Assembly: GCA_021739695.1 (NCBI GenBank)
Contig: JAIPBM010000006.1
Span: forward strand, 62,001-126,000
Source of the DNA: Flavobacteriales bacterium
GTDB lineage: Bacteria > Bacteroidota > Bacteroidia > UBA10329
DNA: 64,000 nt
Reading direction: 5' to 3'
Below the pieces are notes generated by a model that was not told where the DNA came from, searched no databases, and saw only the letters and a program-made list of their open reading frames with translations. Positions 42,331-56,196 of the stretch are shown one piece after another. How positions within the stretch are numbered: position 1 is the stretch's first letter; each line of letters opens with the position of its first letter. The position numbers were made by a program, and so were the translations under genes.

Positions 42331-44982
42331 TCATTGTTTACCACTTAAGAAGCTCCTATTCTTTATTAACGAGATTAAAACTCTTTCCGAATAATCATAA
42401 ACTGAGTCACGATTGTCTTTTCTCGTCGATGGAAGTTGGTGCAATTCAAATGCGATTCTATTATCTTCGAAGACTGAAACAACTTTATTTAGGATATTCC
42501 TCTGTATTTTAGTCCCTATCTCCGAAGTCCAGATACGCAACGCACTGTCAGCCTCGTCTATCGACTTCCTAGTAACATTGAGTTCAAACCTAGCATCACC
42601 GAAGAAATTCGCGATACCAGAGCACGTCCCAATTGGAGCAATATTGCTACATCTTATAGGTAATCGAATCCCATCTTGATAAACACCATTGTGGCGTTCT
42701 TCAGAACTAAGAAAGTTACTTAAATACCCAATGTCATCAAGGAACTCGGAGTAACTCCCATCCATATCCTCAACGAAATAATGCATCATATCATACCTTT
42801 CAACAGTATTCGAAACTAAATCTGCAACCATAAAATTTGTTTCCCCTTCAACTAATTTGGAATTTTCAAATAAAAGAGACCTGTCATGAAAAAGCGAGTC
42901 GCGATTCTCCCCTCTTAGGGCTTTCATCATTTGCTCTACTTTATCGTGTACCGTTTCGGTCACGTCATCATCAAGGTAATCACCAATAAGTTCAATCCCG
43001 TTCTCCACCCATTCATCGGAACTGGCAATTACTGACTCAGCAAGACCACTTTGCCCCTCAAAGGTTTGGGTAATAATATCCTTCTTATATAGGTAATCAT
43101 GAATAATGAAGCCATGAACTGAGTACCATTCGATGCCAATTTCAGGCATGTTAATCTCGATTGGGATATACAGCAAAGACACATTACTGGAGTTAGAACT
43201 CTCATATTTAGTTGAAACTTGTTCAACCTGGAAATTTTCATCCAACTTCAAAAACAATGGCTTATCAATCGCTAAACTCTCTAAACCCCTTTTTGATGGA
43301 ATCGTTAGTGTCAAATCTGAAACAAACGGTAAACCATGTGTATCCATGTCTCCTCTTACGTGTGAAGCCATCTTAAACAATTCTTCATAATCAGACGCAG
43401 AACTACAGTGGGCAAGCTCTTTTTCCAATCTGTCCACCATTCCCGCTCTTTCAAAGATATTGGCCAGTCCATCATAATCGAAGAATACTAAGGGCACGGA
43501 GGGGGAATAAAAGGTAGAGCCAACGTAGTTGACAAGTCGACCAAAATCTAAGTTGGTTTTCAGCTTGGTTGTCACCTTGGTTCCAAAATCGACTGAAGCT
43601 TGAGCACAGAATGTATTCAGAGACTCCGTCCTGAGGACAACCTCCCTGCCAATTTCACTCGATTCCTTTCTTGAGCGCGTTTCTATAATTACCGTATTTG
43701 CTTTGGTGAGACATGCGACAAATCCGATACCAAACTTTGCAATTGAAGGAAATTTTATTTTTTGAAAATTCTGTATTTCTCCGTATCCAGTGCTTGCCAC
43801 GTTGAATAGAAATTTTTTCAAATCGGCCACTTCCATGCCAATACCGTTATCAGTAACAGACAACTCAGCTCCATTACCCCGTAAACAAACAACCGTGCAA
43901 GGCGAGTACCCCTCCAACTTCCAGTGTTTAGGATTAACAGTATCTAAGTTCGACCCATTGCTTTCATAAATCCATCTTAAACATGCATCAATACTATTTT
44001 GAATAAGCTCCCTAATGAAATCATACTTTCCAGTATAAACTGATTTAGATATCACATCCCAAATTCTTCCTTTTTCATCAATTTCGAATCTAAGTTGCCA
44101 TAGCTCGTAATTTGCTCCTTCTGCACGTTTAATATCAAACTCAGGTTTAGGTAATGCGAAAATCTTGAGGTTACCGGTAAGAACATATGTATTGGCATGA
44201 ATGATATCTTGTTTCAAATAACCAAACCACTCTGTCCAAATCGTGTGTTCTTCTATTGAACTTGCTTCTACTTCTATTTGAATTTGGGTACTATCGTAGT
44301 TAAAGTGTCTAACCCCTTTGTGGCGATGGTGGTGAGCATTAGACTCTTCATTCGGGAAACTGTTCTCCATGAATCTTTTTACAGGGTCGCAACTTCTTTC
44401 CGAATCCAAATCCATTAGATCACCCACCCTTAGAAGTATAGCAAGTAATCCTATCCTAAACTCTTGGTCAAAAACTCTTTCGGTCTGAGTAAATAATCGC
44501 GAAGAATTCAATTCATCCCATGTCAATCCGTGGGCCCGCGCCACAAATCCAATACAAGCAGATAATCGAGGTATATATTCACTAATTGATGCACATCTCT
44601 CAACCAAAAATTCCTGAATAAACTTATCTGACTCGACATGATGATTTCTTCTTAACAAATCCAAATCACCCGTTGATTGAATCATTCCTACATCGTGAAA
44701 CCCAGCAGAAACAAGTAAACCGAATATCTCAACAGATGTTAGGTGTTCTTTCGCTTCATCAGTTAAGATACATTCTATTTTCCTGAGAATCCTAAGTGAA
44801 TGTTGAATATCATGACTTGTAAAACTTGGGTAATTTTTCCTCACGAACCCGAGCAACTCTGCTGCATCACCAAACAATGACGTAGCCAAGCCCAATAATA
44901 CGGTAGCTTCCTTTTCTCCATCTACAGAACGACATTGTAACTTCTTAAATAACGTAAGCTGACCTAATTCTACTGGCACCAT
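42331..44982 (-). CDS. HD-domain plus GHKL (Hsp90-like) ATPase protein
   Basis: 883 residues, no signal or membrane segments. Residues about 50-200 form an HD phosphohydrolase-like domain, with SHDIQHSLRIL (His57), GFHDVGM (HD at 96-97) and RVGDLMDLDSER (Asp188). Residues about 310-520 form a GHKL ATPase: N box RELIQNSIDAC (Glu325, Asn329, Asp332), G1 box TDNGIGM (378-383), and a lid/G2-like region GYGEIQ and FGIGFVACL. The rest (520-883) resembles the middle part of Hsp90/MORC-like proteins but has no motif I know. The combination fits proteins seen in prokaryotic defence islands. It is divergent from the CBASS operon across a 404-base gap. An anti-phage role is inferred from context; the biochemical role of the HD domain (nucleotide cleavage?) is unknown. 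Confidence 0.75.
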   Translation of the reverse strand: MVPVELGQLTLFKKLQCRSVDGEKEATVLLGLATSLFGDAAELLGFVRKNYPSFTSHDIQHSLRILRKIECILTDEAKEHLTSVEIFGLLVSAGFHDVGMIQSTGDLDLLRRNHHVESDKFIQEFLVERCASISEYIPRLSACIGFVARAHGLTWDELNSSRLFTQTERVFDQEFRIGLLAILLRVGDLMDLDSERSCDPVKRFMENSFPNEESNAHHHRHKGVRHFNYDSTQIQIEVEASSIEEHTIWTEWFGYLKQDIIHANTYVLTGNLKIFALPKPEFDIKRAEGANYELWQLRFEIDEKGRIWDVISKSVYTGKYDFIRELIQNSIDACLRWIYESNGSNLDTVNPKHWKLEGYSPCTVVCLRGNGAELSVTDNGIGMEVADLKKFLFNVASTGYGEIQNFQKIKFPSIAKFGIGFVACLTKANTVIIETRSRKESSEIGREVVLRTESLNTFCAQASVDFGTKVTTKLKTNLDFGRLVNYVGSTFYSPSVPLVFFDYDGLANIFERAGMVDRLEKELAHCSSASDYEELFKMASHVRGDMDTHGLPFVSDLTLTIPSKRGLESLAIDKPLFLKLDENFQVEQVSTKYESSNSSNVSLLYIPIEINMPEIGIEWYSVHGFIIHDYLYKKDIITQTFEGQSGLAESVIASSDEWVENGIELIGDYLDDDVTETVHDKVEQMMKALRGENRDSLFHDRSLLFENSKLVEGETNFMVADLVSNTVERYDMMHYFVEDMDGSYSEFLDDIGYLSNFLSSEERHNGVYQDGIRLPIRCSNIAPIGTCSGIANFFGDARFELNVTRKSIDEADSALRIWTSEIGTKIQRNILNKVVSVFEDNRIAFELHQLPSTRKDNRDSVYDYSERVLISLIKNRSFLSGKQ

Positions 44983-45386: not shown

Positions 45387-46334
45387 ATGCCAACCAACAA
45401 AAGTGAATACCTACAAGACGTACTCAGTTCTCATAAAATGAATCATGTCCAGACCCTAATGGACAAATACCTTACAAAGCGAGACTTTGTAAAAGCCGCT
45501 CTTAGTCTTAAGTACTCTGACAAGAAGGCAACAGAACCTATAAATTCTGGATCCTATGCCAAGCATACAGCAATCAACACAAAATTTGACATCGATGTTT
45601 GTATTCCATTTAAACGAAACAGTTTTGATACGTTGGAGAAAATGGCAGATGATGTTTACACCTACTTCCAAAATGAGTATGTCGATTCACAACTGATAAA
45701 ACCAGTGCGAAAGCAACGAGTTAGTGTTGGACTCACATTTGTCATAGATGGTGAAGAAATACAAATGGACATCGTTCCAGGGAGAGAAATCAATGTGGAC
45801 GAGTATTCGAATACAAATGATTTGAAACTATTTGTCAGGAAAAAAGATGAAATCCCTGCTTCCGAGACAAAAACCAATATTAAAAAGCATATCGATCATG
45901 TCAGTGGGAAGAATGCTGAACGCGATATAACCAGACTGCTCAAAATTTGGAAAGTCTCGAATAGTAAAAAGTATAAATCATTCTTCATCGAATTGTTCAC
46001 GATTCGAGCGTTTGAGTATAACTCAAGCAGCATTCCAAACGGATTGTGGCCAAAATTGGAAATGGTAATGAAATTCATTAGAGAGAATGCAGAGACCATT
46101 CAATTAAAAGATCCTGCTAACTCAAACAATATTGTTTCTGACACGCTAACTGCGGGAAAGAAAACCAGCCTTGCAAACGACATGAAAAATATGTTGCGAA
46201 AAATTGAGGAGGACAGTGACAACATTAGACTATACTTCCCTATCAACGATGATTTTGGAAGTCATCCAAACTCCAGTAATGAGCAATCAAAAAATACGGG
46301 GCCTTCAGTTTTGAAAACACGAAGCTTTGGTTAG
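45387..46334 (+). CDS. CBASS CD-NTase 1 (cyclic oligonucleotide synthase, CdnC/CdnD-like)
   Basis: 315 residues. Nucleotidyltransferase core: GS motif SGSYAKHT at Gly55-Ser56, metal ligands Asp68 and Asp70 in KFDIDVCIPF, and third ligand Asp128 in IQMDIVPG. The helical C-terminal part has RLLKIWKVSNSKKYKSFFIE and the DPANSNN signature typical of OAS-type cyclases. On phage infection such enzymes make cyclic di- or trinucleotides that switch on an effector. The last 25-30 residues are polar and disordered-looking and end in Gly (KTRSFG), suitable for conjugation through the C-terminus by Cap2. First gene of the operon; its stop codon directly abuts the Cap2 ATG. The product is predicted to be cyclic tri-AMP because the effector is NucC-like; that is inference. 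Confidence 0.85.
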   Translation: MPTNKSEYLQDVLSSHKMNHVQTLMDKYLTKRDFVKAALSLKYSDKKATEPINSGSYAKHTAINTKFDIDVCIPFKRNSFDTLEKMADDVYTYFQNEYVDSQLIKPVRKQRVSVGLTFVIDGEEIQMDIVPGREINVDEYSNTNDLKLFVRKKDEIPASETKTNIKKHIDHVSGKNAERDITRLLKIWKVSNSKKYKSFFIELFTIRAFEYNSSSIPNGLWPKLEMVMKFIRENAETIQLKDPANSNNIVSDTLTAGKKTSLANDMKNMLRKIEEDSDNIRLYFPINDDFGSHPNSSNEQSKNTGPSVLKTRSFG

Positions 46335-47957
46335 ATGGTGGACAAAATTGTCCTTTACAACGAATTTTTCTCCGCTCAGGAGAGAATTGAACTATACTCG
46401 GTTTTCGCACAAAAAAGCGAGAATGTATCAGGACAAATAATCGTTCAAACCGAAAAAGGCCCACTCCCTTTTTCCGTAGAAATACCCTTAGGCTATCCAT
46501 TAGGGAATTCTAGGACATCAATTGTGTTTACCTGTGATAGCATTTCTGGATATGAACATCAGAATTTTGACAATTCCATATGCCTCCACCCCTCTCCGAC
46601 CAACTGCATAGAAGAAAAGCTACAAGAGGAAATCAATCTCCTATATGAGTGGATTGACTACTATTATGTTGAAGAGAGTCGTGATTCCAATTATGGTTAT
46701 CTTCTTACAAGCCCAAACAACGTTTGTTTGCTCTTTGACGAAACCCCAAATAGCCTAATCAAAAATGATTCTGGGTATTTCTTATTCAAGTCGTTTGGTA
46801 GGGATTCGCTGACGGGGGTTGAACGAATAATCGTTACTAAGATAGGAGTTCATGATGCGGGTTTTGCTAACCACTTTTTGGAGTACAAACAAGAAAAGCC
46901 GCTAGAAGGCATATGGATTTACATTAAGGATGAACCCGTTATAGAAAGACGAAAAGCCGTATTGTCTTGGGAAGATTTGCAACCATATCTGACATCTACG
47001 AATGTTGATTCCATCTACCAGTATCATCGTGATGTCATGCGTGGTAGAAATAAGCCGGATAATTTCCTTGTGCTTCTCGGTCATGATATCCCCACAGATA
47101 ACGGACACGAGATACATTGGGTATGTGTACGAATAAACACATCTAATCTACCTATTGAAGGTGTCAAAATCAGTGGAGAATGGCGAGGTCAGTCTACCAA
47201 CCAACGGCTGGATTGGTGTAGCACAGTAAATTGTTCATATGCGCGTTATTTTGGAAGAGGCAAGCTGTCTGATGCTATTACCTTAAAAAACATCCTTCTA
47301 ATTGGAACTGGAGCGATTGGAAGTAGTCTGGCTAAAACATTGGTAAGAGGTGGAATTAGACGCCTAACAATCATAGATTTTGATGTGGTTGAAGCTGGAA
47401 ACATATGTCGTTCAGAATTTACCTTGAATGACATCGCTCATCCCAAAGTATATGCACTCATTAGCAAGCTGATTGCTATATCTCCATTCGTTGATGTTAA
47501 GCCTCTTTTACATCTCGATAAACGACTGCCAGATGACCCACATTATATTCAAACAAAAGAGTTCCTCAACAGTTTCGAATTAATTTTTGATTGCTCTACC
47601 GATATGGAAATTGCTTACATGATGGACAAGATGAGCCTAAGTGCTGAAATTTTCAATTTGTCGATAACGAATAAAGCGAATGAACTTATTTGTGTTCACG
47701 GGAAAACAACCATTTCAAAACAAAAGCATCAGATTTTCGAAACCCTTTCCCCGGAAAGCCAACAAGCCAATTTCTACCCTGAGGTCGGATGTCAGTACCC
47801 GACTTTTGAGGCTGGGTACACCGATCTTAATGCGCTACTTCAATTTGCAGTAAAGAACATTAATCACAAATACGAGAAGGGGTTTTCCCAAAGCACTTTC
47901 GTCCTTCGCCCAATCGAATCTGAACACAACTACAAAATTGTTGTAGATGAATATTAA
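46335..47957 (+). CDS. cap2: CBASS Cap2-type E2-E1 ubiquitin-like conjugating enzyme
   Basis: 540 residues. The N-terminal E2-like part (about 1-130) has a candidate catalytic Cys83 in NSICLHPSP, the usual cysteine-His-Pro style E2 motif of this group. A linker of unknown fold follows. The C-terminal E1/ThiF adenylation domain (about 295-530) has the ATP-binding GxGxxG at 324-329 (LIGTGAIGSSLAK), TIIDFDVVEAGNICRSEF, and a candidate E1 catalytic Cys486 in EVGCQYPTFEAGY. Cap2 enzymes attach the CD-NTase C-terminus to other molecules and thereby prime it. It starts directly after CD-NTase 1 and overlaps the JAMM gene by 11 bases. Slightly shorter than the best-studied Cap2 (about 600). Confidence 0.85.
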   Translation: MVDKIVLYNEFFSAQERIELYSVFAQKSENVSGQIIVQTEKGPLPFSVEIPLGYPLGNSRTSIVFTCDSISGYEHQNFDNSICLHPSPTNCIEEKLQEEINLLYEWIDYYYVEESRDSNYGYLLTSPNNVCLLFDETPNSLIKNDSGYFLFKSFGRDSLTGVERIIVTKIGVHDAGFANHFLEYKQEKPLEGIWIYIKDEPVIERRKAVLSWEDLQPYLTSTNVDSIYQYHRDVMRGRNKPDNFLVLLGHDIPTDNGHEIHWVCVRINTSNLPIEGVKISGEWRGQSTNQRLDWCSTVNCSYARYFGRGKLSDAITLKNILLIGTGAIGSSLAKTLVRGGIRRLTIIDFDVVEAGNICRSEFTLNDIAHPKVYALISKLIAISPFVDVKPLLHLDKRLPDDPHYIQTKEFLNSFELIFDCSTDMEIAYMMDKMSLSAEIFNLSITNKANELICVHGKTTISKQKHQIFETLSPESQQANFYPEVGCQYPTFEAGYTDLNALLQFAVKNINHKYEKGFSQSTFVLRPIESEHNYKIVVDEY

Positions 47958-48429
47958 GTTCCAACAACCAAAGCTAGGTCTCACCTTGCTTTTACCTGAA
48001 AAAATTCTTCAGCAAATTCAACATTTGGCCAGCCAGCACTACCCAAAAGAATTTGGAGGCATTTTTCTCGGTTCCTCGGTTGATGAGACTACAACTCTCA
48101 TTTCATGTAGCGTCATCCCTGATAAGTACGTGAGTGACAAAACCAGTTTTACCCGACACCCTGACAACTTGAATGATGAAATACACAGAGCTTATAATGA
48201 ATCAAATGGTCAAATCAACTATTTAGGAGAATGGCACACACACCCAGATGGAAGCCCTAACTACAGTACAAAAGACCTAAATACAATGAGGGACATTGGG
48301 GAATCTGATACAGTGGTCACGGACCATCCACTCCTGCTAATCATGGGAATAAAACGTTCCAAGTGTGCTATCAAACTTTATATATTACACAATAAATCAT
48401 TATTCGAATATGGGCAAGCTAGACATTAA
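47947..48429 (+). CDS. cap3: CBASS Cap3-type JAMM isopeptidase
   Basis: 160 residues. The complete JAMM/MPN+ zinc protease signature is visible: Glu35 in KEFGGIFLG, then His97-Thr-His99-Pro in GEWHTHPDG, Ser107 and Asp110 (YSTKD). Cap3 removes the CD-NTase from its conjugates and so restrains CBASS signalling. It overlaps Cap2 by 11 bases and the nuclease gene by 20 bases, consistent with tight translational coupling. Confidence 0.9.
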   Translation: MNIKFQQPKLGLTLLLPEKILQQIQHLASQHYPKEFGGIFLGSSVDETTTLISCSVIPDKYVSDKTSFTRHPDNLNDEIHRAYNESNGQINYLGEWHTHPDGSPNYSTKDLNTMRDIGESDTVVTDHPLLLIMGIKRSKCAIKLYILHNKSLFEYGQARH

Positions 48430-49147
48430 GCAACTCTTCCTAGGTCTTCAGCGCGAGATGATCGCTGAAATGCAAACTATTAGGGAAAATATCGACCACG
48501 CCCCAACTATGGGAGACGGTTCTGAAAGTGTTTGGGCAACTTGGTTACGAACCAACCTTCCGAATAGATATAACGTTGACAAAGCGATTGTCATAGACCA
48601 TGAGGGAAATCAAAGCGAAGCCATCGATGTAGTTATTTACGATCAACAATACACCCCTTTTGTATTGTCCAAGAACAGCGTTAAGCTAATTCCAGCAGAA
48701 AGTGTTTATGCGGTATTTGAGGCGAAACAGGATATAGATAAGGCTCATATTCTTTATGCCGGTGGGAAAGCAAAAACCGTGCGGTCGCTAAAGCGAACTT
48801 CAGCCAAAGTTGTGGACAAAGGGGTTGTTAAGGATGCTCCAGTGTTATTCACAATAATGGCTGGAATCCTGACTCTTGGAAACGGATGGAAAAAATCCTT
48901 GCCCGATAATACTTTCTTCTCAAATGCAATGGGTGAACTCAAATCAGGAGAAGAATTAAATCTCGGTTGTGTCCTTATGGGTTCTTCCTTTGACGCTAAA
49001 TACAATCCTTCGCTTGAAATTAAGTTTAGTACCGAAGAAGAAAGTCTAATATTTTTCTTTCTAAGACTTACTGAAGAACTACAGAAGCTTGGCACCGTTA
49101 GGCCTATTGACTTGAGAGCATATAGTCAAGCCCTAGATTCAATATAA
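48410..49147 (+). CDS. nucC: NucC-type CBASS effector endonuclease
   Basis: 245 residues from the ATG at 48410 (the open frame begins further upstream inside the JAMM gene). It closely follows the NucC pattern: GDGSESVWATWLRTNLPNRY, then EAIDVVIYDQQYTPF, then PAESVYAVFEAKQ. The PD-(D/E)XK catalytic residues fall at Asp73, Glu104 and Lys106, the same numbers I recall for E. coli NucC. NucC assembles as trimers, binds cyclic tri-AMP, pairs into hexamers and cuts double-stranded DNA without sequence specificity, killing the infected cell. NucC is best known with HORMA/TRIP13 (type III) CBASS; here it follows Cap2 and Cap3. It overlaps the Cap3 gene by 20 bases and ends 4 bases before the second CD-NTase. 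Confidence 0.9.
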   Translation: MGKLDIKQLFLGLQREMIAEMQTIRENIDHAPTMGDGSESVWATWLRTNLPNRYNVDKAIVIDHEGNQSEAIDVVIYDQQYTPFVLSKNSVKLIPAESVYAVFEAKQDIDKAHILYAGGKAKTVRSLKRTSAKVVDKGVVKDAPVLFTIMAGILTLGNGWKKSLPDNTFFSNAMGELKSGEELNLGCVLMGSSFDAKYNPSLEIKFSTEEESLIFFFLRLTEELQKLGTVRPIDLRAYSQALDSI

Positions 49148-49151
49148 ATCC

Positions 49152-49940
49152 ATGATAGGAGATGCCCACATATTAAAAGTCATCAAGCAGAAAAAACTAG
49201 AGCCGCTAAGCAAGACTGACCCAAGGCTTAAACCACTACTGAATACCTTAAAATCTTGGGCGGGAGAATCTTTAGCAGGCAACGTTACTTCTGGAATTAA
49301 GGTGTCTGGATCGACAGCAAAAGGAACAGCTTTAAAAGGAAAAGCTGATCTTGATTTGCTTATTTCCTTAAAGGATTCTACCAAAGGCACATTAGAAGGC
49401 AGATACGACTCTCTGTTCAAATATTTGCAAATTCATGAAGAGAGACTCGGTATCACGAAGAGACGAAGACAAAATGTCTCCATTCGTGTCTATACTAAAG
49501 ATTATAAAATAGATCTCGTTCCAGCCAAAAAATTACCAGGCGTGCATAATTGGCATTATATACTCGTCAGAAGAGATTCCAAAAATCGTACTAAGACTAA
49601 TGTAGATTTACATATTCAAACGGTTAAAAAGTCTGGTAGACAAAATGAGATTCTTGCCACTAAAATTTGGCGGGACAATTTAAAATTAGACTTTCCTTCA
49701 ATCTATCTTGAACTTGTCGTAATAGAGAGTCTTCGTAACAAAGGAAAAGACCAAATTGCTCTAAACTTCACCAGAGTACTTGAGTATTTGAGTACTGACT
49801 TTGTCGACAAAAAAGTTGTAGATCCCGCAAATGCCGCTAATACAATTTCAAACCTGCTGAGTAAAACTCAGAAAAAGACTATCGCCACTCAAGCTAGACA
49901 AACACTCAAGGAGCGTTTTTGGGTCAACAAAATCTGGTAG
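49152..49940 (+). CDS. CBASS CD-NTase 2 (second nucleotidyltransferase of the operon)
   Basis: 262 residues. The nucleotidyltransferase core is intact: GS motif SGSTAKGTAL at Gly53-Ser54, Asp66 and Asp68 in KADLDLLIS, and third Asp121 in YKIDLVPAKK. The C-terminal half has EILATKIWRDNLKLDF, PSIYLELVVIESL and the DPANAANTI signature also seen in CD-NTase 1. So this is a full, apparently active-site-complete enzyme, not a remnant. It differs strongly from CD-NTase 1 in sequence and is shorter by about 50 residues. It ends RFWVNKIW, with no flexible Gly-ended tail, so it may not be a Cap2 target. It starts 4 bases after nucC. Function alongside CD-NTase 1 is unknown. Confidence 0.8.
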   Translation: MIGDAHILKVIKQKKLEPLSKTDPRLKPLLNTLKSWAGESLAGNVTSGIKVSGSTAKGTALKGKADLDLLISLKDSTKGTLEGRYDSLFKYLQIHEERLGITKRRRQNVSIRVYTKDYKIDLVPAKKLPGVHNWHYILVRRDSKNRTKTNVDLHIQTVKKSGRQNEILATKIWRDNLKLDFPSIYLELVVIESLRNKGKDQIALNFTRVLEYLSTDFVDKKVVDPANAANTISNLLSKTQKKTIATQARQTLKERFWVNKIW

Positions 49941-49975: not shown

Positions 49976-50245
49976 ATGGACGTAATTTGTTTACAAGAAG
50001 AAGCCTTTTACAAACTTATTGAAACAGTAGTTGACCGTATCAATGAGAAGAAAGGTATTTCCGAGAATCGCTGGATTCGTGGTGAAGAAGCCATGGAGGT
50101 GTTAGGCATCAAGAGCCGGACTACGTTGCAGAAACTTCGTGATGATGGTTGGATTCGCTTTTCGCAGCCAAATAAGAAGATAATCATGTACGATAGAGCT
50201 TCCATATTGGAATACCTTGAGAATCACGCAAAAGACTCATTCTGA
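49976..50245 (+). CDS. Small helix-turn-helix (excisionase-like) protein
   Basis: 89 residues from the ATG at 49976; the open frame extends back to 49919 inside CD-NTase 2, but family proteins begin near MDVICLQEEAFYKLIETVVD. The C-terminal half has the MerR/excisionase-type wHTH pattern WIRGEEAMEVLGIKSRTTLQ and DGWIRFSQPNKKIIMYDRAS, common in Bacteroidota accessory elements. It probably binds DNA and could regulate the operon or act as an excision factor. Its stop overlaps the next ATG by one base (TGATG). Confidence 0.75.
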   Translation: MDVICLQEEAFYKLIETVVDRINEKKGISENRWIRGEEAMEVLGIKSRTTLQKLRDDGWIRFSQPNKKIIMYDRASILEYLENHAKDSF

Positions 50246-50532
50246 TGACTGACAATGACGGTAATGAAATGGATGCATCTGAGCTCGAGGACGACTTTGA
50301 TGAAGTCGAATTCGAGGTCGGATTCAATCAAGGATATACGATGAGTGAATTAGACTCTGAGCTTGCTCTAGAGCTTGATAATGGCATAAAAGAAGCTACT
50401 AGTCATTCGAGTGGTTTTGTGGCTGGCATTCGGGAGTTCTTGCGGTCTCGGGAGGTTCAAAAAAGTCGTGAAGATGAATTGAATGAATTACGTAACGGCA
50501 AGACAAATCGGAATCTGAACAGAGACCGATAG
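50245..50532 (+). CDS. Small acidic protein of unknown function
   Basis: 95 residues. The N-terminal half is strongly acidic (many Asp and Glu, about residues 1-45) and the C-terminal third is basic and polar, ending in an Asn/Arg-rich tail. No family is recognised. It is translationally coupled to the HTH gene by a one-base overlap, so it probably partners it or belongs to the same operon. An acidic DNA mimic or inhibitor is conceivable but unproven. Confidence 0.6.
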   Translation: MTDNDGNEMDASELEDDFDEVEFEVGFNQGYTMSELDSELALELDNGIKEATSHSSGFVAGIREFLRSREVQKSREDELNELRNGKTNRNLNRDR

Positions 50533-50633
50533 GGATTACGTGTTTGCTCTAGGTAAAACTGGACGGTTCCGTATTTAACAGGTAGAATGAGTAGTAAGGA
50601 ATGGCATTCAATTTTTTTGACCATTACTGGTTA

Positions 50634-50705
50634 AACTTAAAATAGCACAATTCCTTATTTTAAGTTCGTCAACTAAGTTAAAATAACGTCCTTTGTTATT
50701 TCAAC
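50634..50705. promoter_or_regulatory. Inverted-repeat array upstream of the Fic gene (putative operator)
   Basis: Two consecutive inverted repeats share one motif. The first is AACTTAAAATA (50634-50644) and TATTTTAAGTT (50656-50666), perfect over 11 bases with an 11-base spacer. The second is GTTAAAATAAC (50677-50687) and GTTATTTCAAC (50695-50705), 10 of 11 bases with a 7-base spacer. All four half-sites are variants of AAGTTAAAATAA. The array ends 10 bases before the Fic ATG. The Fic protein has a C-terminal winged-helix, so autoregulation at these sites is plausible. Confidence 0.6.
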
Positions 50706-50715
50706 TTCAAATCCT

Positions 50716-51840
50716 ATGAAACCTTTCAAATCAGGCAAATTCATACAACAGTATAAGTACAAGAGTTTCCTTCCAACATTATTGAAGGAGACTTTTGATT
50801 GGAGGAGTGCAACTGTCCTTAGTCTATTGGAAAAGGCATCAGCCCAGTTAGGAGAATTGAACTCGTATAGTAAAACTGTGCCTGACATCAACTTCTTTAT
50901 TGAGATGCATAAGGCAAAGGAAGCTACCACCTCAAGTAGAATTGAAGGAACCCGAACAAGTATTGATGAAGCGGTTCTCTTTGAAAGTGATGTGAATCCT
51001 GAAAAGAGGGATGATTGGGAAGAAGTTCAGAACTATATCAAGGCTCTTAATCACTCGCTGGCAAGATTAGGCGAACTTCCCCTTTGTATTCGTCTGTTAC
51101 GAGAAGCACATGAAATATTGCTTTCAGGTGTTCGTGGTGAGAATAAGTTGCCCGGAACTATTAGAACAAGTCAGAACTGGATTGGTGGTGCAGATATTAA
51201 AAGTGCCATGTTCATTCCTCCACATCATAATGACCTTTCAGACCTTCTGACCGACCTTGAGAATTTTTGGCATGAAGAATCTTCGGAAATGCCTTTGCTT
51301 ATCAAAACAGCAATCAGTCACTATCAGTTTGAGACAATCCACCCTTTTCTTGACGGAAATGGAAGGATTGGCCGATTGCTTATTACCCTACAATTGCTGG
51401 ACTCACAGCTTTTGGACAGACCAACATTATATATTTCAGACTTCTTTGAAAAGAACCGTTCTGCGTACTATGATGCACTTATGACAACTCGTGAATCTAA
51501 CGACATGGATCATTGGTTGCGGTTCTTTCTTACTGGTGTTATCGAAACTGCTAAGAGTAGTAAAAAGACATTCGTTCAAATTGGAGCATTACGCAAATCA
51601 TATAATGAACGAGTTGCACAGTTAGGTAGAAGGTCAAAACTAGCCGATGCTTTAATTCTGAAAATGTACTCAAACCCAATCATGTCTCCTAGAGAGGTTG
51701 AAAGTGAATTGGACATTGCACCTGCTACAGCAAATAGCTTACTTAAGGCAATGGAAGAAATTGGACTAGTTGAAGAAAAATCAGGAAGAGCAAGAAACCG
51801 ACTGTACGTGTTGCATGAGTATTTGGGGATTTTTGAGTAA
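50716..51840 (+). CDS. Fic-family AMP-transferase with N-terminal inhibitory motif and C-terminal wHTH
   Basis: 374 residues. The Fic motif HPFLDGNGRIGR is at about 209-220 with catalytic His209. The inhibitory motif [S/T]xxxE[G/N] is seen upstream as SSRIEG (Glu77), so this is a class II (self-inhibited) Fic enzyme. The C-terminal 80 residues form a winged helix (SPREVESELDIAPATANSLL, then KAMEEIGLVEE). Fic proteins usually transfer AMP from ATP to Ser, Thr or Tyr of target proteins. No separate antitoxin gene is needed because the inhibitory helix is in the same chain. Flanked by an inverted-repeat array that could be its operator. A toxin or regulatory role in defence is inferred from context. 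Confidence 0.88.
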   Translation: MKPFKSGKFIQQYKYKSFLPTLLKETFDWRSATVLSLLEKASAQLGELNSYSKTVPDINFFIEMHKAKEATTSSRIEGTRTSIDEAVLFESDVNPEKRDDWEEVQNYIKALNHSLARLGELPLCIRLLREAHEILLSGVRGENKLPGTIRTSQNWIGGADIKSAMFIPPHHNDLSDLLTDLENFWHEESSEMPLLIKTAISHYQFETIHPFLDGNGRIGRLLITLQLLDSQLLDRPTLYISDFFEKNRSAYYDALMTTRESNDMDHWLRFFLTGVIETAKSSKKTFVQIGALRKSYNERVAQLGRRSKLADALILKMYSNPIMSPREVESELDIAPATANSLLKAMEEIGLVEEKSGRARNRLYVLHEYLGIFE

Positions 51841-52392: not shown

Positions 52393-55300
52393 TTACCGCA
52401 CATTAAAAGCGGCAACCCCATTCCGCTTAAGTGATGGGAAAGAAACTAGCGGTAAAGGGCTTTTTTCTTTTGCTAGATAAATCACTGGAAGATCGGTTGA
52501 TGTTAAGAGTAAAGAGACGATTTTAAACTTTTCGGGATTTTCCACAAATTCCCCAAGCAAATTTTGGTTTTTCAATAGCCATTCATGTCTTCTTGCATGC
52601 TTGTGAACCCATGAATCAGCCTCTGTCCTACCCAAGTACTTATCCATTTCCGTCTTCATTTCATGCATGACCCTCGCCCCAACAGTATTTTTACATTCTA
52701 TGGAGTAGAATACTCTACGTGTTTTATCGATTGCCGCAATATCAATGTCGCCAAACTTTCGGTCTTCGTCCAGCCCGCTTAATCTGAAGGGTTTAACCTC
52801 ATGCGGAACTATTTCCAATGAAGTTTCTTGACCGAGCCAAGTCGCAACATCATTCCTAAAATCCTTTCCTTTTTGAACATTGACCCCCTTGATGAAGGCA
52901 CTCAGTTTACCGCCATCCTTAGCCTTCAATCTTCCGGTCTGAATTAGGAATTGGAGATTGTGAACACAGTCTATCATATGTCGATAACTCCAAAGACATT
53001 TGTCATTTAAGTCTCGGATGATTGGTTTACGTAGATAGGACAATTCTCTATTATATCGCCATGGATATATGTCTCCTTGCTCAAAACCTTTCGGGACTTT
53101 GACTATTGACTTGCGAGGGTACAAGCTCAACAGTTCTATTGCCGTGTCCACTTCCGATTCAGCCATGCTTTTCATCTTTCCTGTCAATTTCGCTAAATCA
53201 TCAACATCCTTAATTGCTACTGAATCACCTCCATCGATAGCTATCTCTGCTAAGGCCCACATAACCTTTAACAGAGCGGTATACTCAATCCCAAATTCCT
53301 CTTTAAACGCTTCATCCAGCTTAGTGGCCATTAATGGCTTGTCACGAGGTTTTTCGCTTACCTCTGGTCGACCTTCAAACGCAACATCAAAATTCTCTTG
53401 AAAGTTGACAATGGACGATTCTGCCATGGCATGTGAAAACGGTTTCAGGTAATTGGATAGAAACTCCGATTCCGTTCCAATTTGACCAGAAGGCAGTAAG
53501 CCCATTTGGGGATCATCCATCCCAAGTTCTATTGAATCCGACATCATCCCCCATTGGAATACCTGTTCCATAAGGGCTATCAACTCATCTAGGTCATCAA
53601 GGTTCACCCATTTGTCACCCGTTCCAGGCTGCGCGGCCACAAATTCTATCAAGCAACGAACAGCGAGTGTAGTTTGTACAAACTCCTTATTAGTCTTTAC
53701 TAGTTTTCCCACTTCCGAAGCAAAGTCACTGCAACAGGAAACTTTTGCTGGAATATCTATTTCCTGATACTCTCGCTTCTGAATACAGCCTTCATGCATA
53801 CTCATAAGCCATTTCAAGAGGGTTTCGCTTGGATATTTTTGCATTTTGAGGACAATCTCGTCCACCAACTTGGCCACGATTCTGTTGCAAAGTTTCTTTT
53901 TGTCTTCAATGTTGTCGATTGTCTCTGGTATTGGCGATTCCAAGTCCAGTTTGTCTACTAAGTTTTCTAGAATGTGTGACACATCACTTTCTTGAATCGC
54001 TCTAAAAGGTAGAATCCACCTGTTATCCAGTCGAAGGTCTCGGCTAGAATCTACAACGATTATCATTTTAGCCGAGGTTGGTATCATGATCTTCTTGACC
54101 CATGTATCAACCAAGTCTATTTCTGGGTATTCAAGTTCAGAGGATTTAAGTAAATCCGACATCCCGGAAAGGACACTTCTCATTATTTTTTGCTCCCCCA
54201 CATTGTTTGACTTCATCAGGTCAAACATGATTTTTTCGGATAACTTAACCATAAGAGAAAGACTCTCGGGCAAACACTCAACTTCAATGTCCGTTTTTGA
54301 ACTCTTTATCTCATCAACAACAGATGGGTGAATAATACCGTCTTCCAGTTCTATCTCGATTTCGACAGGTTGATTGGCCGTAAATTGATTTAGATACGGC
54401 TTCAACTCGTCTTTCATTCTGAAAATCCAATAGACTATGGCCTCGGAGAAAATGTTTATCATCCACTTATCAGCTGGCTGCTTCGCTTGCGTATTTTTAA
54501 CCCACAACGGAGAAGAAAAACATTCAAGAACCAATTCGTGTCTGGCGCCATTTTGTTCTCTAAGTCCATAAATCGGTGCAAAGTCCTTATACCTGGTAAC
54601 CGGAGCCAACCTTATTTCTCCATTGAAACGCTGACGAACGGAGTGTTCATCTCTATGCCCCTGCACCTCCCTTTCAAAATCATTGGACAAACCAACGGAG
54701 AAGCTCATAAATGACATTTTTGGAGCATCTGATGGAGTAAGTGATTGTCCATTGGTCCTGTAATATGAATACGAATCAAGTATTCCAAACAACGGCATAG
54801 ATGGAACCGAAGAGTTAGAGTACGTAGCTGTTCGAACGTTCGCAAACTTCCATAGACCTAAAGCATCTAACTCCTCAGAATGCACAAGAGTCTCCAGCTC
54901 ACCGTATTTGAGAACAAGCAGTTGGTCCAAATCATTTTTTGAGCCGTTTGTAGAAAACGAATAATAATCAACTGTAAAACTCTCGCCAAGAATATTGAGA
55001 ATGAAGTATCTGTATGGATAATCAACATTCAGTTCATTTCTTAAGAAGTCTATTACGACATTGACTCGCTTATCCCGAGGCTTTCTTTTTCCCTTACCAA
55101 TATTCTCAAATGCATTGCGTTGGTCTTCCGGATTACTCATCCCCGGCATAATGAAACGGACGTAGGCCAACTTGTCGTTATCAAACCTGTATACGCTTTC
55201 AAAAAGTTTAGACTCTGAGGGGGGAAGTTGTATACTCGTTTCAGCCCAGTCAATCTTTGTCAATAGCTTTTTTGAATTATCCCATTGTGTTCCAGCAATA

Positions 55301-56196
55301 AGTTCCAAGAGCATATCTTGACAACCAAATTCCATCGATTGCTCTTTTAAATACTGTAATAGGCAGTCAACAATTGCTGTAGGCAAAGCAAAAACATATT
55401 CACCATCAATAGTTTTGACAATCGGTCTTCGTAAAAGTGGGTTGGAATCGGCATCGTCACCATACAAGTCCTTATCCTCCCTATCAACAACAAATGCCTC
55501 AAATGCTTGAATTGATGAATTGACGGTATTAACCAAGTCTTTTATCTCATCTTGACTAAATGTCACAACCTGCTTGAGAAATTCCAGTCGACTTCTTTCA
55601 GGAATTTCGATTTCTGTTTCTATCGGTTCTTCAAAAAGATTTCGGGTTAGGCCAGCATTGGAGGTAATGCTTTCGCTAATTGCAAGAATAAGGGTAGTAG
55701 CTTGCCCTATTCTATGTTTAAATTGGATTGGCAACTGGTTCTTTTGCAAAAAGATTGCCTCTAGGGTGGTTCGCAGAATTCTTGTCCCGCCTGTGGTAAG
55801 TCCAGGGAGGACCGTGTGGTCTCCTCCATACCAACTAATGTTCTCAGAGAAAAAAGAACTTACTGGATCTTCTAAATAATGATCTGTCAGGTTCTCTTTG
55901 AAGAACTTTAACAAACTAGAAAATTGAATTTCAGGCTTAACAGATGTCTGAATAGATCGTGTCAGTTGCCTTGCAATAATTTCGAAACGAACATTCTTGC
56001 CATGGTTCTGAGGAACCAGTTGGCAAGCAGCGTTAATTTTCAGTAGATCATCCGTGTCATACCGTGATATTAAATCTCCCAACGGAGTTGAGGAGTTCGG
56101 TTTCGAGAACTGTTGCTCCTTTTTGATACAACATTTCTTGAACTTTTTTCCACTACCGCAGGGACAAGGGTCGTTTCTTCCAATCTTAGCCGCCAT
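52393..56196 (-). CDS. Giant SEC-C-motif protein with C-terminal PD-(D/E)XK-like nuclease motif
   Basis: 1267 residues, soluble. The N-terminus is a SEC-C zinc motif ([17 protein letters not shown], about 6-23), as found at the end of SecA and in many nuclease or toxin proteins. The long middle part (about 30-1100) shows no recognised domain. Near the C-terminus, GDIDIAAID (Asp1150, Asp1152) and FYSIECKN (Glu1167, Lys1169) form the D...ExK pattern of restriction-endonuclease-like folds, followed by a helical end. It lies alone on the minus strand in the defence island. A DNA- or RNA-cleaving defence protein is plausible; the target and trigger are unknown. Confidence 0.7.

What the first reader, a model, noticed from the sequence alone, without database searches (positions are those of the whole stretch)
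49152..49940. Second CD-NTase is divergent, shorter, and lacks a conjugatable tail
It keeps the GS motif, all three acidic metal ligands and the DPAN signature, but shares little other sequence with CD-NTase 1 and ends RFWVNKIW instead of a Gly-terminated flexible tail. This suggests it is not a Cap2 substrate and may be controlled differently, or that it regulates CD-NTase 1.
Basis: partly seen in the sequence, partly recalled or inferred. Interest (0 to 1): 0.7.

Follow-up and report, generated by a model that had tools for sequence, protein, structure and literature searches.

The report
Tail-less second cyclase sharing NucC
A bacterial anti-phage operon carries two different alarm-signal enzymes but only one DNA-cutting executioner; the second enzyme belongs to a family that elsewhere runs the executioner by itself, without the ubiquitin-like machinery that the first enzyme depends on.

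Summary
ORF 49152-49940 (NT2, 262 aa) is a genuine CD-NTase with GS, Asp66/Asp68/Asp121 and DPAN, ending in an ordered ...FWVNKIW. It is the fifth gene of a type II CBASS operon: NT1 - Cap2 (E1-E2) - Cap3 (JAB) - NucC (Pfam DUF6602) - NT2.

NT2 is neither a decayed copy nor a duplicate of NT1; an AU test rejects in-place duplication (p 2e-6). It sits inside a widespread family of ~250-aa tail-less CD-NTases. In 74 of 92 loci of that family, NucC lies immediately downstream and no Cap2 or Cap3 is present: minimal type I CBASS. The missing tail is therefore a family trait. All 12 NT1s with a full Cap2 end in -FG, whereas 2 of 81 NT2s end in G.

The five-gene composite recurs in two other Bacteroidota genomes (L049/L152, L149). 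Its NucC belongs with type II NucCs, so NT2 joined a complete type II operon as a lone gene. Each of the three composite genomes has one NucC.

Best reading: two separately controlled cA3 synthases, one Cap2-dependent and one Cap2-independent, feed one NucC. "Not a Cap2 substrate" is well supported. "Regulates NT1" has no support here. Product, activity and independence are inferred, not shown.

The parts
45387..46334 (+). NT1: CD-NTase 1, 315 aa, ends ...KTRSFG; presumed Cap2 substrate
   Evidence: PDLC00803 2e-79; -FG end in 12/12 relatives with full Cap2; S54-G-S, D68, D70, D128 invariant in 17/17
46335..47957 (+). Cap2: E1-E2 protein (ThiF), 540 aa
   Evidence: PADLOC E1-E2 PDLC00852 2.5e-137; Pfam ThiF 1e-18
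47947..48429 (+). Cap3: JAB isopeptidase, 160 aa
   Evidence: PADLOC JAB 3e-39; Pfam Prok-JAB 1.5e-14
48410..49147 (+). NucC endonuclease effector, 245 aa (ATG at 48410; the mechanical ORF start is GTG 48365)
   Evidence: PADLOC CBASS effector NucC 5e-85 and NucC 2e-51; Pfam DUF6602 1e-29; the only NucC in the genome
49152..49940 (+). NT2: second, tail-less CD-NTase, 262 aa, the feature in question
   Evidence: PDLC00803 1e-67; AlphaFold2 pLDDT 95 with EcCdnC/PaCdnD as best PDB matches; tree nests it in the minimal NT2-NucC family
49305..49316 (+). S52-G53-S54-T55, the XGSX motif of NT2
   Evidence: first X = Ser in 76/81 NT2 homologues and 17/17 NT1
49347..49355 (+). D66-L-D68, metal-ligand pair of NT2
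   Evidence: D66 in 77/81, D68 in 81/81 homologues
49512..49514 (+). D121, third metal ligand of NT2
   Evidence: 80/81 homologues
49821..49832 (+). D224-P-A-N227 signature of NT2
   Evidence: D224 80/81, N227 81/81

Best explanation
NT2 is a catalytically competent CD-NTase of the short, tail-less family that elsewhere forms two-gene type I CBASS with NucC. It has been added as a single gene to the 3' end of a complete type II CBASS operon. Shown here: family, intact active-site residues, ordered non-Gly C-terminus, nested phylogeny, recurrence of the five-gene order in three genomes, and one NucC per composite genome. Inferred: NT2 is active and makes cyclic tri-AMP, its activity does not depend on conjugation by Cap2, and it responds to its own infection cue, so that two differently controlled cA3 sources (NT1 via Cap2/Cap3, NT2 without them) converge on one NucC as an OR-type input.
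For: 74 of 92 NT2-family loci have NucC immediately downstream with no Cap2/Cap3/HORMA/TRIP13 within 6 kb, in Proteobacteria, Bacillota, Bacteroidota, Acidobacteriota and others. So NT2-type enzymes evidently serve NucC as the only cyclase. NT1-type enzymes also occur as the only cyclase with Cap2, Cap3 and NucC (L024, L147, L175, L176 and others). The composite recurs in L049/L152 (NT2 64% identical) and L149 (44%). Exactly one NucC in each composite genome. NucC of window/L049 and of L149 group with type II NucCs, not with NucCs of the minimal NT2 systems. In-place duplication rejected, p 2e-6. dN window vs L049: NT1 0.21, NT2 0.29, NucC 0.41, Cap2 0.46, Cap3 0.56, so NT2 is more constrained than the effector. 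First residue of XGSX is Ser in both enzymes; that residue is proposed to set product choice, and the cA3 enzyme EcCdnC has SGSL (PMC13424991). Nearest solved relatives EcCdnC, BcCdnD, PaCdnD are all cA3 makers according to that paper. NucC is activated by cAAA (PMC10419184). A C-terminal Trp blocks conjugation in E. coli cGAS (PMC10097602).
Against: No biochemistry: product, activity and phage dependence are inferred. dS is saturated, so dN/dS could not be computed. Only three composites are known, one at a contig end (L049). NT2 of L149 is a long branch, so its joining the other two is less sure. 17 of 92 NT2-family loci show no NucC nearby (several in Patescibacteria), so the family is not tied to NucC absolutely. 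Cap2 could still bind NT2 non-covalently.
Confidence: 0.68

Rival explanations
1. NT2 and NT1 form a heteromeric cyclase, or NT2 acts as an allosteric regulator (activator or brake) of NT1; the pair is one signalling unit rather than two inputs.
For: Two CD-NTases are kept side by side in three genomes, and another NTase-like family (NTTM) takes the same 3' position in L146, L171 and L174, so type II NucC operons repeatedly carry a second NTase.
Against: NT2 relatives stand with no NT1 nearby, NT1 relatives with no NT2. Catalytic residues are intact, which a pure regulator would not need. No interface could be predicted with the tools at hand.
Confidence: 0.12
2. NT2 makes a different cyclic oligonucleotide, serving another effector or antagonising NT1 signalling.
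For: NT1 and NT2 are only 21-28% identical; some NT2-family loci have no NucC, so other products or effectors may exist in the family.
Against: Ser at the product-determining first position of XGSX in both (PMC13424991); the closest minimal relatives L151 and L052 (100/96 support) are paired with NucC; no other effector in the operon.
Confidence: 0.1
3. NT2 is a passenger: a chance insertion of a foreign cyclase downstream of a complete type II operon, without lasting function.
For: It is the last gene, and its absence from seven single-cyclase full type II relatives shows that it is dispensable; eight other genomes of the genus lack the system.
Against: The same order in three genomes with NT2s diverged to 44-64% identity and open frames; lower dN than NucC, Cap2 and Cap3.
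Confidence: 0.07

Closest known systems
Minimal type I CBASS made of a short CD-NTase and NucC (for example Sinorhizobium meliloti pEm1132b, Cupriavidus taiwanensis plasmid I, Paenibacillus rhizovicinus plasmid; loci L041, L043, L040)
   Same: NT2 is a member of this cyclase family by sequence, length, tail-less end and active site; its partner is NucC
   Different: Here NT2 follows NucC instead of preceding it, sits in a type II operon, and the NucC comes from the type II lineage
Type II CBASS with Cap2, Cap3 and NucC (L024, L147, L175, L176)
   Same: NT1, Cap2, Cap3 and NucC in the same order
   Different: Those operons have a single cyclase; here a second one is added at the 3' end
E. coli MS115-1 CdnC (PDB 6p80/6p8v/6u7b), type III CBASS with NucC
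   Same: Best solved relative of NT2 by sequence (A5 profile, 6e-15) and fold; NucC partner; SGS motif
   Different: Regulated by HORMA/Trip13; 321 aa; about 20% identity in the fold alignment; CdnC relatives lie outside the NT1/NT2 group in the tree
Bacillus cereus BcCdnD (PDB 9sa4/9sa5), type II CBASS
   Same: cA3-making CD-NTase, related to both NT1 and NT2
   Different: Its effector is Cap4, and one cyclase is described for the operon

Membership tests
[quoted passage not shown]
   G53-S54, D66, D68, D121; conserved in the family
[quoted passage not shown]
   PDLC00803 1e-67; NCBIfam CBASS_cyclase_a 1.6e-15, below its 200-bit cut-off, against cca_archaeal 6.5e-8; Foldseek top hits EcCdnC, PaCdnD
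[quoted passage not shown]
   needs biochemistry
Short NucC-associated type I CD-NTase family | nests in the family tree | tested here: met
   with L151/L052 at 100/96, inside the NT2 family
Short NucC-associated type I CD-NTase family | NucC immediately downstream, no Cap2/Cap3 (as an operon) | tested here: not met
   NucC is upstream and Cap2/Cap3 are in the operon; the protein belongs to the family, the operon is not a type I operon
Cap2 conjugation substrate (type II CD-NTase) | C-terminal Gly or Ala | tested here: not met
   ends Trp; Gly-to-Trp abolishes conjugation in E. coli cGAS (PMC10097602)
Cap2 conjugation substrate (type II CD-NTase) | flexible C-terminal tail | tested here: not met
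   C-terminus is an ordered helix in a confident model
Type II CBASS (whole operon) | CD-NTase with Cap2 E1-E2, Cap3 JAB and an effector | tested here: met
   NT1 ends -FG
tRNA/aminoglycoside nucleotidyltransferase | closer to these than to CD-NTases | tested here: not met

The most novel reading that the evidence does not exclude
A distinct two-cyclase class of CBASS in which a conjugation-controlled and a conjugation-free CD-NTase work as one unit (direct cross-talk, for example hetero-assembly or Cap2 attaching NT1 to NT2) to set the threshold of a single NucC. The recurrent appearance of another NTase family in the same 3' slot would then be the same principle reached twice.
Probability: 0.12. 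Interest if true: 0.8.

Novelty: new variant of a known kind. Interest (0 to 1): 0.52.

Why it matters
What activates CD-NTases and why only some are conjugated by Cap2 are open questions. This operon offers an internal control: two cyclases, one with and one without a Cap2-ready tail, reporting to the same NucC. It makes testable whether carrying a Cap2-independent cyclase protects against phages that defeat the Cap2 route, and whether infection cues differ between the two enzymes. I found no description of two-cyclase CBASS operons in the held open-licence papers; subscription papers were not searchable, and I have a vague, unverified memory that early CBASS surveys mention operons with two cyclases.

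Tried and rejected
In-place duplication of NT1: rejected by AU test. NT2 as decaying pseudogene: open frame, intact motifs, low dN. NucC-NT2 pair imported together: NucC groups with type II NucCs. HTH (49976-50245), ORF95 and Fic as parts of the system: L049 has no such gene in the 289 bases left after NT2, and in L149 the next gene downstream is on the other strand. L107 as a further composite: the NT2 fragment begins beside what looks like an insertion-sequence end, so it is uninformative. dN/dS: dS saturated. NT1 structure: model unusable. Phage collection and single-sequence viral scan: no hits. Promoter and terminator scan: no excess over shuffles. NTTM proteins as equal 'second cyclases': set aside, see noticed items. 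A plasmid search with NT1 found NT2-type NucC-linked cyclases, judged by the overlap with the NT2 search, and no second NT1 system.

Full report
Observation. The ORF at 49152-49940 encodes 262 aa. It carries G53-S54, D66-x-D68, D121 and D224PAN227 and ends RFWVNKIW, as reported. It matches the same PADLOC oligonucleotide-cyclase model as NT1 (PDLC00803; 1e-67 and 2e-79) and is a significant though distant homologue of NT1 (28% over residues 52-253, E 3e-13; 21% globally).

Surroundings. The operon is NT1 (45387-46334), Cap2 (46335-47957), Cap3 (47947-48429), NucC (48410-49147) and NT2 (49152-49940); successive genes overlap, abut or lie at most four bases apart. The gene before NT2 is Pfam DUF6602, which PADLOC identifies as the CBASS effector NucC (5e-85).

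Fold. With a 50-sequence alignment NT2 is modelled at pLDDT 95.1 and pTM 0.91; the last residues form a helix. The best solved matches are E. coli CdnC and P. aeruginosa CdnD; CCA-adding enzymes and OAS score lower. The profile of the family finds EcCdnC (6e-15), BcCdnD (1e-11) and PaCdnD (5e-10) in the PDB.

Relatives. A plasmid search, a scan of 85,000 species genomes and a viral scan gave about 90 NT2-family loci. In 74 of 92 loci examined NucC lies immediately downstream and no Cap2, Cap3, HORMA or TRIP13 is within 6 kb; 17 have no NucC nearby; one, L049, has NucC, Cap2 and Cap3 upstream (the count includes L151). The 74 are minimal two-gene type I CBASS operons in Proteobacteria, Bacillota, Bacteroidota, Acidobacteriota and other phyla. 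In 81 aligned members D68 and K57 are invariant, D121 is kept in 80, D66 in 77, and the first residue of XGSX is Ser in 76.

The composite recurs. L049 (=L152, an uncultured Flavobacteriales MAG) has the same five genes in the same order, NT2 64% identical and NT1 71%. L149 has them too, with NT2 44% and NT1 45% identical. Of 16 NT1-type loci whose neighbourhood could be read, 3 carry NT2, 4 carry another NTase-like protein (NTTM, see noticed items) and 9 have NT1 only. Each of the three composite genomes has one NucC and no more.

Origin. In a tree of 109 CD-NTases the three composite NT2s join (100/89), next to minimal-system NT2s of Bacteroidota L151 and L052 (100/96), inside the NT2 family; NT1s form their own group (99/97). 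A second tree agrees (composite NT2s 99/93, with L151/L052 100/96; NT1s 87/88), and an AU test rejects NT1 and NT2 of window and L049 as one clade (p 1.8e-6). NT2 of L149 is a long branch, so its position carries a caution. The NucCs of window and L049 group with NucCs of type II operons (100/98) and that of L149 with another set of type II NucCs (100/96), not with those of minimal NT2 operons. NT2 therefore joined complete type II operons as a lone gene, and it is found behind two different NucC lineages.

Tail. All 12 NT1-type enzymes in operons with an E1-E2 Cap2 end in -FG; the 4 in operons with only a short E2 protein do not; 2 of 81 NT2-family members end in G. In E. coli cGAS the terminal Gly is needed for conjugation and Gly-to-Trp abolishes it; C-terminal G/A is conserved only where full-length Cap2 and Cap3 are present (PMC10097602). 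NT2 ends in Trp. So the missing tail is a family trait, and NT2 is very unlikely to be a Cap2 substrate.

Mechanism. NucC is activated by cAAA (PMC10419184). The first residue of XGSX is proposed to decide the product, and cA3-making EcCdnC has Ser there (PMC13424991); NT1 and NT2 both have Ser. NT2-type and NT1-type enzymes each occur elsewhere as the sole cyclase with NucC. The simplest reading is two cA3 sources under separate control sharing one NucC. The cues, the product and the independence are inference.

Constraint. Between window and L049, dN is 0.21 for NT1, 0.29 for NT2, 0.41 for NucC, 0.46 for Cap2 and 0.56 for Cap3; dS is saturated. NT2 shows no sign of decay.

'Not a Cap2 substrate' and 'controlled differently' stand, the second by inference. 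'Regulates CD-NTase 1' is unsupported but not excluded.

Novelty. The enzyme is a new member of a known kind; the two-cyclase operon is a new variant of type II CBASS as far as the held literature shows. The paper searches found no description of it, but that library lacks most subscription papers.

Noticed in passing
L146:7127-8191, L171:10928-11992, L174:5339-6409, L150:4945-6018, L172:287-1345, L179:7732-8799: A family of ~355-aa proteins (NTTM) joins a hydrophobic, glycine-zipper-like N-terminus to a CD-NTase domain (PDLC00803 1e-25 to 4e-38) with GS and all three Asp kept but the conserved Lys after GS lost. They sit after NucC in type II operons, upstream of NT1 in L150, or after CdnC-HORMA-TRIP13, and G474 (L150) has no NucC match anywhere in its genome, so they may be membrane effectors or receptors rather than cyclases.
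   Followed up: partly
L095, L096, L097, L098, L101, L108: Patescibacteria and related genomes carry NT2-family CD-NTases without NucC; the partner gene is unidentified.
   Followed up: no
L025:9280-9927, L173:8863-9510, L146:9033-9674, L171:9534-10187: E2-only proteins (with a C-terminal SEC-C motif, tested in L025) replace full Cap2; the NT1 of these operons lacks the -FG end.
   Followed up: partly
L148:4821-6089: A Cap3 (JAB)-NucC fusion protein in one reading frame, 422 aa, as judged from its sequence.
   Followed up: no
L066:268-3749: An NT2-family gene in a Clostridia contig appears split by an insertion of about 2.9 kb with two ORFs on the other strand.
   Followed up: no
window 42331-44982 (-): 883-aa protein with an HD-CE domain followed by an Hsp90-like ATPase domain, next to the CBASS operon; no PADLOC match.
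   Followed up: no
window 49976-51840: HTH_17 protein, a 95-aa acidic ORF and a SoFic-type Fic protein follow NT2. Fic relatives also lie near the NT1 operons of L146 and L171.
   Followed up: partly
window 52393-56196 (-): 1267-aa protein with an N-terminal SEC-C motif, otherwise without a family match.
   Followed up: no
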